Below, one piece after another: positions 2,697 through 63,375 of a stretch of 64,000 nucleotides of DNA. This DNA is from Solimonas flava DSM 18980 (GTDB lineage: Bacteria; Pseudomonadota; Gammaproteobacteria; Nevskiales; Nevskiaceae). The notes beneath the pieces are model-generated. The model had not been told where the DNA came from and ran no database searches. It saw nothing but the letters and a program-made list of their open reading frames with translations. The position numbers and the translations under genes are program-made. The DNA lies in contig NZ_AUFV01000007.1 in the NCBI RefSeq assembly GCF_000426685.1, forward strand, positions 186,001-250,000, in the 5' to 3' direction. Positions within the stretch are counted from its first letter, which is position 1. Each line of letters starts with the position of its first letter.

Positions 2697-3659
2697 ATGA
2701 ACCTGAATTATCTGGACTTCGAACAGCCGATCGCCGAATTGCAGCAGAAGATCGAGGAGCTGCGCTTTGCGACGACCGGCAGCGGCGTCAACCTGACCGA
2801 GGAGATTGCGCGCCTCGAGGTCAAGAGCCGCCAGCTCACCGAGAACGTGTTCGCCAAGCTGACGCCCTGGCAGGTCGCGCAGCTGGCGCGCCATCCGCAG
2901 CGCCCGTACGCGCTCGACTACGTCAAGAACCTGTTCACGGAATGGGATGAGCTGCACGGCGACCGTCACTTCGCCGACGACCCGAGCATCGTCGGCGGCG
3001 TCGCCCGCCTGGAAGGGCGCGCCGTCGTCGTGCTCGGTCAGCAGAAGGGCCGCGACGCCAAGGAGCGCGTCTACCGCAACTTCGGCATGCCCAAGCCGGA
3101 GGGCTATCGCAAGGCGCTGCGCCTGATGAAGCTCGCCGAGAAGTTCAACCTGCCGATCCTGACCTTCATCGACACGCCGGGCGCCTACCCGGGCATCGGC
3201 GCCGAGGAGCGCAACCAGTCCGAGGCGATCGCGCGCAACCTGTTCGAGCTGTCGAAGCTGCGCACGCCGGTGCTGGCGACGGTGATCGGCGAGGGCGGCT
3301 CGGGCGGCGCGCTGGCGATCGGCGTCGCCGACCACATCATGATGCTCCAGTACAGCATCTACTCGGTGATCTCGCCGGAAGGCTGCGCGTCGATCCTGTT
3401 CAAGGACGCCGGCCGTGCCCCGGAAGCCGCCGAGGCGATGCGCATCACCGCGCCGGATCTGTTCGAGCACAAGCTGATCGACGAAATCGTGCCGGAACCG
3501 CTCGGCGGCGCACACCGCGATCCGGCGGCAATGATGACGACGATCCGCCAGAAGCTGATCGCCAACCTCGAACGTCTGCGCCACACGCCGATGACGCAGC
3601 TGATGGCGGCGCGCTACCAGCGGCTGATGTCGTACGGTTCCTACGAAACCCTCCACTGA
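2697..3659 (+). CDS. accA: Acetyl-CoA carboxylase carboxyltransferase subunit alpha
   Basis: AccA forms the carboxyltransferase with AccD and transfers the carboxyl group from biotin-BCCP to acetyl-CoA, giving malonyl-CoA for fatty acid synthesis in the cytoplasm. The 320-residue length is normal. The N-terminus ([22 protein letters not shown]) is typical of the family, and [20 protein letters not shown] and the [12 protein letters not shown] glycine-rich oxyanion region are clearly visible. The ATG start is preceded by an AGGACGAGAGACG stretch that can serve as ribosome binding site. It lies between dnaE and tilS, the conserved gammaproteobacterial order. Confidence 0.97.
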
Positions 3660-59330: not shown

Positions 59331-60103
59331 GAGCGGATCGTGCGGCTGCGCCGATCGGTGTGTTCGATTCGGGTGTCGGCGGCCTGTCGGTGCTGCGCGA
59401 GCTGCGTCGCGAGCTGCCGCACGAGCATTTCATCTACTACGCCGACAGCGGGCATTGCCCGTACGGCGGCAAGCCGGCGATCGAGATCACGGCGCGCGCG
59501 TTCGCGATCACCGACGAGCTGCTCGCAGCCGGCGCCAAGCTGATCGTCGTCGCCTGCAACACGGCGACGATCGCCGCCGTCGAGCAGCTGCGCGCGACCT
59601 ATCCGCTGAGCTTCATCGGCATCGAGCCGGCGATCAAGCCGGCGGTGCGACAGACGCGTAGCGGCGTGGTCGGCGTGCTGGCGACCGGCGCGGCGCTGGC
59701 CGGCGACAAGTTCCTGCGCCTGCAGGCCCAGCACGGCGACGGCGTGCGCGTCATCACGCAGCCCTGTCCGGGGCTGGTCGAATTCGTCGAGCGCGGCGAA
59801 CTCGACAGTCCGGCGCTGCGCGCGCTGCTGCGCCGCTACATCGAGCCACTGCTGCGCGACGGCGCCGATACGCTGGTGCTCGGCTGCACCCACTATCCGT
59901 TTCTGCGCCCGCTGATCGCCGAGATCGCCGGGCCGTCGGTGGCGCTGCTCGATACCGGCGCGGCGGTCGCCCGCCAGGCGCGCCGCGTGCTCGAGCGCGA
60001 GGGACTGCTGGCGCCTGATGCCCAGGCGGGGCGCGTCGACTGGCGCAGCAGCGGCGACGCGGCGCGCGTCGGACCGGTGATCGAGCGCCTGCTCGGCGGC
60101 TGA
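59327..60103 (+). CDS. murI: Glutamate racemase
   Basis: Makes D-glutamate for peptidoglycan. The 258-residue protein has IGVFDSGVGGLSVLREL, VVACNTATIAAV with the first catalytic Cys, and VLGCTHYPFLRPLI with the second. The GTG at 59327 overlaps the upstream stop. Longer in-frame starts inside the hydrolase gene are not credible. A 736-bp non-coding region with two glycine riboswitches follows. Confidence 0.95.
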   Translation: MRADRAAAPIGVFDSGVGGLSVLRELRRELPHEHFIYYADSGHCPYGGKPAIEITARAFAITDELLAAGAKLIVVACNTATIAAVEQLRATYPLSFIGIEPAIKPAVRQTRSGVVGVLATGAALAGDKFLRLQAQHGDGVRVITQPCPGLVEFVERGELDSPALRALLRRYIEPLLRDGADTLVLGCTHYPFLRPLIAEIAGPSVALLDTGAAVARQARRVLEREGLLAPDAQAGRVDWRSSGDAARVGPVIERLLGG

Positions 60104-60222
60104 AGTCCGCCGCGCCTTATGCGTGCGCGACGGCGCCGGCGTGTGGCATGCTTCGTGCTCGAATGAATCGCCGCTCGCAGCCCGCTCCGGGCCTGCCGGC
60201 GGCAGGACATTTCACCCAGCCA

Positions 60223-60408
60223 CGCAGGAGAGCGGCAGCCGTCAGGAGCGGCTGCCCACCGAAGGCGCAATCTCCCATAAACGCTCAGGTCCCCGTACTG
60301 CGTCGCTGTTTGCCGACTGAAGAGTGATCCGCGCGAGCGGGTCCGCCGAAGAAGCAAGGTCGCCGCCCGCGGCGCACCGAATCTTTCAGGCCCCAGGACA
60401 GCGGGAGC
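60223..60408 (+). promoter_or_regulatory. Tandem glycine riboswitch 1 (distal)
   Basis: Two glycine aptamers in tandem. Aptamer 1 (60223-60302) is closed by CGCAG/CTGCG, with GGAGAGCG, CCGAAGGCGCAA and AAACGCTCAGG. Aptamer 2 (60313-60408) has GAAGAGTG, CCGAAGAAGCAA and AATCTTTCAGG, followed by CAGGACAG. The changes in aptamer 2 are compensatory (GAAGAG with CTTTC). It lies ~430 bases upstream of dadA with no gene of its own. Confidence 0.85.
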
Positions 60409-60596
60409 GGCGCCGGTTGCCTCGTATAGCGGGGTTGCGGTGTCGTTTCGCGTCCGGGACAGAGGAGGATTCGGGCTTCGGCCCGCCGTGCCATCGTCGA
60501 AGAGGCTCGCCTGCGGCACGTTCGCGCGTGCGGCGATCGCGGCCGGTCGGCGGTGACGGCCCGTTCACGCACCAGCCATACCCTCGAGTGGTAAAC
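60409..60596 (+). other. Spacer between the two riboswitches
   Basis: About 188 bases with no credible gene. It contains a perfect CGGGC-TTCG-GCCCG hairpin (60472-60485) preceded by an AGAGGAGG stretch (60461-60468), but no start codon at ribosome-binding distance. The hairpin could be part of the expression platform of the first riboswitch. Confidence 0.4.
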
Positions 60597-60783
60597 CCAG
60601 GAGAACGCGCGTGCCCCGCAGTCGGGGCCGCGCTGCCGAAGGCGCAGACCCGAAACGCTCAGGCCTCGATACTGGAAGCAGCACACAAACTGGAGAGCGC
60701 CGCGCCGGCAACGGTCGAGCGGCCGCCGAAGGGGCAAGCCGCGTTGGGGCGCGGTGAATCTCTCAGGCAAAAGGACAGTGGGG
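60597..60783 (+). promoter_or_regulatory. Tandem glycine riboswitch 2 (proximal)
   Basis: Two glycine aptamers. Aptamer 1 (60597-60675) has CAGGAGAACG, GCCGAAGGCGCA, GAAACGCTCAGG and closing ACTGG. Aptamer 2 (60690-60783) has CTGGAGAGCG, GCCGAAGGGGCAAG, AATCTCTCAGGC and AAAAGGACAGTGG. It ends 57 bases before dadA. The proximal aptamers match the Rfam-type glycine consensus more closely than the distal ones. Confidence 0.93.
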
Positions 60784-60787
60784 CTTC

Positions 60788-60829
60788 GGCAGCGCGGCGC
60801 GAGACGCCGCGCTGCCTCACTATCTTTTT
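60788..60829 (+). terminator. Riboswitch-linked hairpin/terminator before dadA
   Basis: Perfect 12-bp stem GGCAGCGCGGCG / CGCCGCGCTGCC (60788-60816, loop CGAGA), followed by TCACTATC and five T (60825-60829), just 3 bases past the riboswitch. GGAG (60830-60833) after it is the dadA ribosome binding site. The T run is 8 bases from the stem, so it may act as terminator or as a translational switch. Confidence 0.65.
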
Positions 60830-60839
60830 GGAGCTTGAG

Positions 60840-62132
60840 ATGAAAGTGATCGTGATGGGCGCCGGCGTGATCGGCGTGGCCTCGGCGTGGTATCTGGCGA
60901 AGGCCGGGCACGAGGTGGTGGTGCTCGAACGCAATGCCGGCGCGGCGCGCGAGACCAGCTTCGGCAACGGCGGCCAGATCTCGGTGAGCCACGCCGAGCC
61001 CTGGGCCAATCCGTCGGCGCCGGGCAAGATGCTGCGCTGGCTCGGCAAGGAAGACGCGCCGCTGCTGTTCCGCCTGCGCGCCGATCCGACGCAGTGGTCC
61101 TGGGGCATGAAGTTCCTGCGCGAGTGCAGCGCCAGGCGCTCGACGCACAACATGATCCAGCTCGTGCGCCTCGGCACCTACAGCCGCGAAAGCCTGCAGG
61201 CGCTGCGCGTCGAGGCCGGCGTCGAGTACGACCATCTCGAGCGCGGCATCCTGCACTACTACACGAGCGCCAAGGAATTCGATCTGGCGATCGAGCCGGC
61301 GCGCATCATGCGCGAGATCGGCTGCGAGCGGCGCGTGATCGACGCCGACGAGGTGGTCCGCATCGAGCCGGCGCTGGCGCAGATCCGTTCGCAGCTGGCC
61401 GGCGCCACCTACACCAGCGCCGATGAATCGGGCGACGTGCACAAGTTCACGACCGGACTGGCGGCGCGCTGCGCCGAGCGCGGCGTGCAGTTCCGCTACG
61501 GCGTGCGCATCCAGCGCCTGCACACCGAGGGCGGGCGCATGAGCGGCGTCGAGTATGCCGACGAAACCGGCGCCTACCAGGTCGAGAAAGCCGACGCTTA
61601 CGTGCTGGCGCTCGGCAGCTTCAGCCCGCAGCTCGCGCGTACCGCCGGCGTCGGTCTCGATATCTATCCGGTCAAGGGCTATTCGATCACGCTGCCGGTG
61701 CTCGAACCGGCGCTGGCACCGACCGCGAGCCTGACCGACGACGAGTTCAAGCTGGTGTTCTCGCGCTTCGGCGATCGCCTGCGCGTCGCCGGCACCGCCG
61801 AGTTCGACGGCTATTCGATGGCGCTCAACCAGGTGCGCTGCGAGGCGATCGTGCAGCGCACGCTGCAGGTCTTTCCGGGCATGAGCCGTGCGGAACTGGC
61901 GCAGTACTGGACCGGCCTGCGTCCGGCGACGCCGGGCAACGTGCCGTACATCGGCCGCAGCAAGGTCGAAGGCCTGTATCTCAATACCGGCCACGGCACG
62001 CTGGGCTGGACGCACGGCTGCGGCTCGGGCCGCGCGATCGCCGACATCATCGACGGCCGCCAGCCCGACTGCGATTTCGCGTTCTGCGGCCTGCCGGCGC
62101 GCAAGCCGATGGTGAGCGCGGCTGCCCCCTGA
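60840..62132 (+). CDS. dadA: D-amino acid dehydrogenase/glycine oxidase family FAD enzyme
   Basis: A 430-residue FAD-dependent amino acid dehydrogenase. The Rossmann motif is VIVMGAGVIGVASAWYLAKAGHEV. DadA-type sequence follows (ETSFGNGGQISVSHAEPWANPSAPGKMLRWL; YPVKGYSITLPV; HGTLGWTHGCGSGRAI). DadA proteins oxidise D-amino acids, chiefly D-alanine, to keto acids. The glycine riboswitches make glycine a likely inducer and possibly a substrate here, giving glyoxylate. Expression is probably activated by glycine. A class V aminotransferase gene follows. Confidence 0.92.
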   Translation: MKVIVMGAGVIGVASAWYLAKAGHEVVVLERNAGAARETSFGNGGQISVSHAEPWANPSAPGKMLRWLGKEDAPLLFRLRADPTQWSWGMKFLRECSARRSTHNMIQLVRLGTYSRESLQALRVEAGVEYDHLERGILHYYTSAKEFDLAIEPARIMREIGCERRVIDADEVVRIEPALAQIRSQLAGATYTSADESGDVHKFTTGLAARCAERGVQFRYGVRIQRLHTEGGRMSGVEYADETGAYQVEKADAYVLALGSFSPQLARTAGVGLDIYPVKGYSITLPVLEPALAPTASLTDDEFKLVFSRFGDRLRVAGTAEFDGYSMALNQVRCEAIVQRTLQVFPGMSRAELAQYWTGLRPATPGNVPYIGRSKVEGLYLNTGHGTLGWTHGCGSGRAIADIIDGRQPDCDFAFCGLPARKPMVSAAAP

Positions 62133-62244: not shown

Positions 62245-63375
62245 ATGTCGCGCCTCTTTTCGTCGGTCGATCCGGACGGCCTGCTCGAGTACTCGGTCGT
62301 CTTCAACGACCGGGCGACCAATCACATGTCGCAGCGCTTCCAGCAGGCGATGCGCGACATCTCGGCGACGCTGAAGTCGGTCTACAGGGCGGACGCCGTC
62401 GCCATCGTGCCGGGTGGCGGCACCTTCGGCATGGAAGCGGTCGCGCGCCAGTTCGGCTCGGGACGGCACTGCCTGGTTGTGCGCAACGGCTGGTTCAGTT
62501 ACCGCTGGTCGCAGATCTTCGAAATGGGCGGCATCCCGTCGCGCGAGACCGTGCTCTGCGCGTCCGCCGTCGCCGACGCGCCGAAGGCGCCGTTCGCGCC
62601 GCCGGCGATCGAGGCGGTCGAGGCGAGCATCGCGCGCGAGCGTCCGGACGTTGTGTTCCTGGCCCACGTCGAGACCGCGGCCGGCCTGATCCTGCCCGAC
62701 GATTACCTGCGGCGCGTCGCCGCGGCGGTGCATGCGCATGGCGGCCTGCTGGTGCTCGATTGCGTCGCCTCCGGCGCGATCTGGGTCGACATGCAGGCCT
62801 GCGGCATCGACGTGCTGCTGACAGCGCCGCAGAAGGGCTGGTCGGCGAGCCCCTGCGCGGCGCTGGTCATGCTCGGCGCCGACGCGCGCCGCCGCCTCGA
62901 ACAGACGCGCAGCAGCAGTTTCGCGGCCGACCTGAAGAAGTGGCAGCAGATCATGCAGGCCTACGAGGACGGCGGCCACGCCTATCACGCGACGATGCCG
63001 ACCGATGCGCTGCTGACGCTGCGCGAGGCGATGCAGAAGACGCTGGCCGCCGGCATCGAGACGCTGCGCGAGGCGCAGTGGGCGCTCGGCACGCAGATTC
63101 GCGCGGTGCTCGCGCGGCACGGCTATCCGAGCGTCGCGGCCGAGGGCTACGAGGCGCCGAGCGTGGTCGTCGCCTATACCGACGACGTCGAGATCAGCAG
63201 CAGCCGCCGCTTTGCCGCGCTCGGCCTGCAGACCGCTGCCGGCGTGCCGCTGATGTGCGGCGAGCCCGAGGGTTTCCGCAGCTTCCGCGTCGGCCTGTTC
63301 GGACTCGACAAGCTCACCGACGTCGACGGTGCGGTGCAGCGCTTCGAGGCGGCGGTGCGCGCGCTGCGCGCCTAA
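62245..63375 (+). CDS. Class V aminotransferase (alanine/serine-glyoxylate type)
   Basis: A 376-residue fold-type I PLP enzyme related to alanine-glyoxylate aminotransferases. It shows IVPGGGTFGMEAVARQF, HVETAAGLILPDDYL, LVLDCVASGA and the PLP-lysine in TAPQKGWSASP (Lys197). Related enzymes move amino groups between alanine or serine and glyoxylate, giving glycine. Next to the glycine-controlled dadA this suggests a glycine-glyoxylate-pyruvate module. A TACAAT upstream may be its own -10. A palindromic repeat begins at its stop codon. Confidence 0.85.
   Translation: MSRLFSSVDPDGLLEYSVVFNDRATNHMSQRFQQAMRDISATLKSVYRADAVAIVPGGGTFGMEAVARQFGSGRHCLVVRNGWFSYRWSQIFEMGGIPSRETVLCASAVADAPKAPFAPPAIEAVEASIARERPDVVFLAHVETAAGLILPDDYLRRVAAAVHAHGGLLVLDCVASGAIWVDMQACGIDVLLTAPQKGWSASPCAALVMLGADARRRLEQTRSSSFAADLKKWQQIMQAYEDGGHAYHATMPTDALLTLREAMQKTLAAGIETLREAQWALGTQIRAVLARHGYPSVAAEGYEAPSVVVAYTDDVEISSSRRFAALGLQTAAGVPLMCGEPEGFRSFRVGLFGLDKLTDVDGAVQRFEAAVRALRA

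What the first reader, a model, noticed from the sequence alone, without database searches (positions are those of the whole stretch)
60223..60829. Two tandem glycine riboswitches in series (four aptamers) upstream of dadA
The 736-bp gap between murI and dadA holds two complete tandem glycine riboswitches on the same strand. Each has the GGAGAG..., CCGAAGG-GCAA and CTCAGG cores in both aptamers. They are ~190 bases apart with no gene between. Single and tandem glycine riboswitches are established; two tandem units in series ahead of one gene would be unusual and could act as two gates or give a steeper response. The distal unit has compensatory changes, so it looks maintained rather than decayed. 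Duplication is one explanation, as both units share the linker and AGGACAG features.
Basis: partly seen in the sequence, partly recalled or inferred. Interest (0 to 1): 0.85.

Follow-up and report, generated by a model that had tools for sequence, protein, structure and literature searches.

The report
Two glycine riboswitch pairs before dadA
Ahead of a bacterial amino-acid oxidation gene sit two complete glycine sensors in a row, four glycine-binding units in all; they look like two separate sensors brought together beside one gene rather than a recent copy, and this kind of arrangement has been described before.

Summary
Rfam RF00504 finds four glycine aptamers above its cut-off on one strand between murI and dadA: 60215-60310 (51.0 bits), 60306-60411 (49.7), 60588-60684 (37.0), 60680-60788 (62.3). 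They form two tandem units, U1 and U2, with no credible gene between. S. variicoloris has the same four.

Duplication is not supported. U1 and U2 are 49% identical and fall in different clades. In S. marina, U1's relative follows murI and heads an M20-type peptidase gene; U2's relative heads dadA on another contig. So two separate riboswitches now sit beside one gene, most simply because U1's gene was lost. Insertion in S. marina remains possible.

U1 is not visibly decaying: with its downstream region it is 96.9% identical between the two species, against 81% for three noncoding flanks. A sigma-54-like site precedes it.

Two tandem glycine riboswitches in series are known: 16 quadruplets in Sherlock et al. 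2022 (PMC9481103). I file this as a new member of that kind. U2 as a glycine ON switch has comparative support; a U1 effect on dadA is inferred and untested.

The parts
60144..60159 (+). sigma-54-like promoter element TGGCATGCTTCGTGCT (-24/-12; consensus recalled), 55 bases before U1
   Evidence: score 15.7 of 17.2; strict pattern in 7 of 9 Solimonas U1-clade units and 8 of 38 units overall, expectation 0.046 per 150 bases; in S. variicoloris only two bases between the elements differ. Not tested as a promoter.
60215..60310 (+). U1 aptamer 1 (distal unit)
   Evidence: RF00504 51.0 bits
60306..60411 (+). U1 aptamer 2
   Evidence: RF00504 49.7 bits; relatives covary
60396..60469 (+). U1 expression-platform-like stem (among its arms 60396-60399 GGAC with 60452-60455 GUCC) followed by an SD-like AGAGGAGGA (60461-60469) but no conserved ORF
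   Evidence: 16.7 expected pairs against 6.4 in shuffles, 2 of 100 shuffles reach it; inside the block 60377-60502 that is identical in S. variicoloris
60472..60485 (+). UUCG hairpin CGGGCTTCGGCCCG after the SD-like sequence
   Evidence: sequence; identical in S. variicoloris
60504..60587 (+). rest of the spacer between units, diverging at about the flank rate (80.0% identity, 3 gap columns)
60588..60684 (+). U2 aptamer 1 (proximal unit)
   Evidence: RF00504 37.0 bits
60680..60788 (+). U2 aptamer 2
   Evidence: RF00504 62.3 bits
60764..60837 (+). U2 OFF helix: CAGGCAAAAGGACAGTGG (60764-60781) against TCACTATCTTTTTGGAGCTTG (60817-60837), enclosing the 12-bp hairpin 60788-60816; GGA of the SD (60830-60832) lies in an internal loop of the helix
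   Evidence: fold of the platform alone; consensus structure of 13 chosen relatives keeps CAGGC with its partner in 13 of 13. In the longer fold of 60665-60860 the minimum-energy structure lacks it and the centroid shows only its inner part
60840..62132 (+). dadA, D-amino acid dehydrogenase family
   Evidence: NF001933 496.9 bits, cut-off 383
62245..63375 (+). class V aminotransferase-like gene; all NCBIfam matches are below their cut-offs
59351..60103 (+). murI, glutamate racemase (start chosen by me within a longer ORF)
   Evidence: TIGR00067 198.9 bits, cut-off 146.65

Best explanation
Two complete tandem glycine riboswitches of different ancestry stand in series before dadA. U2 is dadA's own switch. 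Without glycine, the 3' strand of its second aptamer pairs with bases on both sides of the dadA ribosome-binding site and shuts it into the helix; glycine binding takes that strand back and turns translation on. U1 belongs to a different set of glycine switches that in S. marina sit behind sigma-54-like sites and head peptidase and TonB-receptor genes. In the window's lineage U1 has no gene of its own and has been retained. On transcripts that start at the sigma-54-like site, U1 and U2 are both in the dadA leader, so dadA would need glycine at two gates. Shown: four aptamers, separate ancestry, conservation of U1, the U2 OFF helix in relatives. Inferred: gene loss, promoter use, a shared transcript, and any effect of U1 on dadA.
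For: Four RF00504 matches over the cut-off. A tree of 35 units places U1 with the S. marina murI-adjacent unit (support 0.75, within a clade of 0.98) and U2 with the S. marina dadA unit (0.92, within a clade of 0.99 with Cupriavidus and Pigmentiphaga); U1/U2 identity 49%, U1/S. marina murI unit 76%, U2/S. marina dadA unit 72%. blastn homology to the S. marina murI locus covers 60223-60411 and to its dadA locus starts at 60629. murI and nadC are adjacent with no R1 hit between them in 7 of 11 Solimonas genomes. U1 unit plus platform 281 of 290 columns identical against 251 of 310 in three noncoding flanks, Fisher p 1.4e-10. No sigma-70-like promoter and no terminator-like site in 60090-60900. 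U2 OFF helix CAGGC kept in 13 of 13.
Against: No remnant of a lost gene was found in the spacer: the best of 670 tblastn pieces (E 0.006) is matched by 14 of 20 shuffles, so deletion is not shown. The S. marina island is split over two contigs. U1's stem has no conserved start codon to control, and one search found no terminator through which U1 could stop transcription. One species pair supports selection on U1, and the flanks were my choice. Changes in CAGGC and its partner are one-sided (G-C to G-U), not double; GGA of the SD is unpaired within the helix, and the longer fold does not give the helix as its minimum. In the wider set only 15 of 62 dadA leaders beat all 30 shuffles. The promoter scans are consensus matches.
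Confidence: 0.6

Rival explanations
1. U1 is an orphan remnant: its gene was lost, it is still transcribed or merely slow to decay, and dadA is controlled by U2 alone from a promoter just upstream of U2.
For: One unit alone heads dadA in S. marina as far as its contig reaches, about 1.5 kb upstream. One unit is the rule in dadA relatives: 72 of 80 fetched loci have a hit and 5 of 80 have more than one unit, some loci being cut short upstream. No start codon after U1's SD-like sequence opens a frame conserved between the two species.
Against: U1 and U2 aptamers are equally conserved (95.8% and 97.0%, Fisher p 0.59) while the rest of the spacer is at 80%. No sigma-70-like promoter was found before U2.
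Confidence: 0.28
2. Local duplication of one tandem unit.
For: Both units are tandem glycine units with AGGACAG-like ends.
Against: 49% identity, the same as U1 against the gcvT unit of the same genome, and separate clades with supports 0.98 and 0.99.
Confidence: 0.03
3. The ancestor already had U1 and U2 in series, and S. marina inserted peptidase, TonB and other genes between them.
For: murI followed by U1, and U2 followed by dadA and then nadC, are shared by all three species. The M20-type gene next to U1 in S. marina is in 1 of 11 Solimonas genomes at E 1e-60 or better. No gene remnant in the spacer.
Against: The six S. marina units of U1's clade each head a gene, so a U1 without a gene looks derived. 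In a MAG (L066) the dadA paralogue between two glycine units is reduced to fragments while three related loci align over its full length, which suggests that the deletion route occurs.
Confidence: 0.25

Closest known systems
Quadruplet glycine riboswitches (Sherlock et al. 2022, PMC9481103; section 22 read, passages)
   Same: Two tandem glycine riboswitches, each with two aptamers, stacked without an ORF between; a narrower response range is proposed there.
   Different: No terminator-like site between units here; the two units here are of unlike ancestry.
Standard tandem glycine riboswitch RF00504 before dadA in Burkholderiales
   Same: U2, its OFF helix and its gene.
   Different: One unit in nearly all: 5 of 80 fetched loci hold more than one unit, and of these only S. 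variicoloris (L030) has no gene or gene remnant between them.
Pseudo-cooperative tandem riboswitches, e.g. triple c-di-GMP (PMC4759541; title and start of abstract in a search listing)
   Same: Several complete riboswitches for one ligand in one leader.
   Different: Other ligand; characterised experimentally there, not here.

Membership tests
Glycine riboswitch RF00504 | Covariance-model match above the gathering score | tested here: met
   four matches, 37.0-62.3 bits against 32
Glycine riboswitch RF00504 | Two aptamers joined by a short linker | tested here: met
   60215-60310 with 60306-60411; 60588-60684 with 60680-60788
Glycine riboswitch RF00504 | Stems supported by covariation | tested here: met
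   U1 clade: 18 of 48 predicted pairs with a change on both sides in 8 sequences (one identical S. marina unit left out); U2 group: 16 of 52 in 13 chosen sequences
Glycine riboswitch RF00504 | Binds glycine | not testable with these tools
   needs in-line probing or calorimetry
Quadruplet (tandem of tandem) glycine riboswitch | Two complete units on one strand with no intervening ORF | tested here: met
   in S. variicoloris too
Quadruplet (tandem of tandem) glycine riboswitch | An expression platform for each unit | tested here: inconclusive
   U2: OFF helix around the SD (not the minimum). U1: conserved stem before an SD-like sequence without a gene
Quadruplet (tandem of tandem) glycine riboswitch | Both units in one mRNA | not testable with these tools
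   no terminator-like site found, but no transcript data

The most novel reading that the evidence does not exclude
Riboswitch capture: a riboswitch orphaned by loss of its own gene, with its sigma-54-type promoter, was retained under selection as a second gate for the next gene, which already had its own glycine switch. Quadruplet glycine riboswitches would then arise by gene loss in rows of riboswitch-gene cassettes rather than by duplication, with loci such as L066 caught half way.
Probability: 0.35. Interest if true: 0.6.

Novelty: new member of a known kind. Interest (0 to 1): 0.42.

Why it matters
It gives a natural quadruplet glycine riboswitch with a traceable origin: a close relative shows the same two kinds of unit apart, each before its own gene. 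That allows a direct test of whether stacking two cooperative sensors sharpens a response or merely leaves a relic, and suggests gene loss as a source of stacked riboswitches. It also points to a set of S. marina peptidase and TonB-receptor genes headed by glycine switches, most with sigma-54-like sites.

Tried and rejected
Rejected: local duplication. Rejected: a real gene between the units. ORFs there are short or overlapping frames; the GTG frame after the SD-like sequence at 60488 diverges after five codons through indels between the two species. Led nowhere: search for remnants of S. marina island proteins in the spacer. The output was cut in my script at 3000 characters, so I repeated it sorted: 51 query frames, 670 pieces, best E 0.006 for a frame on the strand opposite to the genes; 14 of 20 shuffles of the spacers do as well. 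DNA search with 60405-60520 in 11 Solimonas genomes: the window and S. variicoloris, then E 0.037 or worse. A sigma-70 promoter and terminator scan found none. The fold of 60305-60510 was not informative about the aptamer (z -1.77, 10 of 200 shuffles as good). Pfam gave no match for the truncated exbB-like end of S. marina contig C6 and a sub-threshold ExbD match for the start of C12, so the joining of those contigs stays an inference. Papers holding 'glycine riboswitch' with: D-amino acid dehydrogenase 0, Solimonas 0, peptidase and TonB 0, concerted evolution 0, dadA 3, sigma54 2 (those five not opened); 'tandem riboswitch' with gene loss 0.

Full report
What is there. The 736 bases between murI (stop ends 60103) and dadA (starts 60840) hold four glycine aptamers on the + strand, all over the RF00504 gathering score. 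The plain window scan shows only two; the genome search lists a third, and 60300-60600 searched alone shows the fourth. They pair into two tandem units, U1 (60215-60411) and U2 (60588-60788), 176 bases apart. No credible gene lies between.

Where it is. The window lies in a Solimonas genome (Nevskiaceae). Of 11 Solimonas genomes, the four-aptamer arrangement before dadA was seen in two, G000 and G010; Rfam lists three of the four in G010 and the alignment shows the fourth. In an even sample of Gammaproteobacteria, 39 of 95 genomes other than the window's own have RF00504 matches and none shows more than two at one place (stricter filters that lose weak matches).

Two units of different ancestry. 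A tree of 35 tandem units, chosen by me from those found, puts U1 with the S. marina unit that follows murI (support 0.75), in a clade of S. marina units and one from G007 (0.98), and puts U2 with the S. marina dadA unit (0.92), in a clade with Cupriavidus and Pigmentiphaga dadA units (0.99). U1 and U2 are 49% identical. blastn gives the same split: window 60223-60411 matches the S. marina murI locus, window 60629 onward matches its dadA locus, and the spacer matches neither.

How they came together. In 7 of 11 Solimonas genomes murI and nadC lie next to each other, convergent, with no R1 hit between; in one they are far apart. In S. marina, murI is followed by a U1-type unit, an M20-type peptidase, further U1-type units with a TonB-dependent receptor and M20 peptidases, and tonB near the end of contig C6. 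Contig C12 begins with an ExbD-like fragment (sub-threshold), a weakly TPR-like gene, a U2-type unit, dadA and nadC. The two contigs may be neighbours; this is not shown. In the window's lineage U1 and U2 stand between murI and dadA with no gene between them. Loss of the genes between is the simplest reading because the six S. marina units of U1's clade each head a gene (M20-type three times, TonB receptor, M28, Met-zincin). Insertion in S. marina is the alternative, and no gene remnant was found. An independent case supports the deletion route: in the MAG locus L066 the dadA paralogue between two glycine units is reduced to fragments, while L074, L079 and L109 align over its full length.

Is U1 maintained? 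Between the window and S. variicoloris, U1 with its 3' region has 281 of 290 identical columns; three noncoding flanks have 251 of 310 (Fisher p 1.4e-10). U1 and U2 aptamers do not differ (p 0.59). The flanks were my choice, and it is one species pair. A run of 126 bases, 60377-60502, has no difference; only two runs, in or into dadA, are longer, and a run of 124 lies in U2. The stems covary in 8 relatives, 18 of 48 predicted pairs with changes on both sides.

How it may work. U2: in the window and 12 relatives that I chose, the 3' strand of aptamer 2 (CAGGC) pairs with GCCUG, GCUUG or GUUUG just before the start codon, 13 of 13. The fold of the platform alone agrees and puts GGA of the SD in an internal loop of the helix. 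In the longer fold of 60665-60860 the minimum-energy structure does not contain it and the centroid has only its inner part. The same strand is part of the aptamer in the Rfam model, so glycine should turn dadA on. In a wider set, 62 of the 72 dadA loci with hits plus the window were tried; 62 leaders were scored, one dropped for length; 15 beat all 30 shuffles, and Comamonadaceae leaders are weaker. U1: a similar long stem precedes an SD-like AGAGGAGGA (2 of 100 shuffles as good; among relatives TonB with 34 of 100 and G007 with 9 of 100 do not stand out), but no conserved reading frame follows. A sigma-54-like site lies 55 bases before U1 and one lies before 7 of 9 Solimonas units of that clade; by the strict pattern not before S. 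marina C2 or G007. No sigma-70-like promoter or terminator was found in the leader. If transcription starts at the sigma-54-like site, both units lie in the dadA leader and act in series. That step is inference.

What is known. dadA behind a glycine unit is ordinary: 72 of 80 fetched dadA relatives have at least one model hit. Two tandem units in series are in print: Sherlock et al. 2022, section 22, 16 quadruplets, with a narrower response range proposed (passages and section 22 read). In PMC12452182 and PMC6944388 I saw passages only. I therefore rate this as a new member of a known kind. What may be new is the origin: unlike units made neighbours, with the orphaned one kept.

Noticed in passing
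G000:C6:141946-142340 (-), locus L009; also L126, L111, L113, L123, L142, L143: Before gcvT an extra copy of promoter region plus aptamer 1 lies 199-252 bases upstream of the normal tandem unit (two extra copies at 199-base spacing in G042). The 56-60 base cores of the copies are identical or differ by one or two bases within each of 7 genomes but differ by up to 13 columns between genomes (G000 and G010 alike), which looks like concerted evolution or repeated copying. G004 appears split at the repeat by a contig end.
   Followed up: partly
L114, L115, L116 (S. marina): Six glycine riboswitch units, five with a strict sigma-54-like site, head metallopeptidases (M20-type, M28, Met-zincin) and a TonB receptor: a possible glycine-controlled peptide-use regulon.
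   Followed up: partly
L114:12606-12808 and L116:2434-2636: Two S. marina units before different peptidase genes are identical over the unit while their flanks differ: recent conversion or copying.
   Followed up: no
L066:1909-2912: Two glycine units flank fragments of a dadA paralogue that aligns over its full length in L074, L079 and L109.
   Followed up: yes
G000:C5:517-1782 (L128): A second dadA (82% identity) near a contig end without a glycine unit in the 516 bases available upstream.
   Followed up: partly
window 60588-62132: Outside Solimonas the DadA is closest (79-84%) to Cupriavidus, a Burkholderiaceae bacterium and Pigmentiphaga, and U2 groups with their units, which suggests joint transfer of gene and riboswitch.
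   Followed up: no
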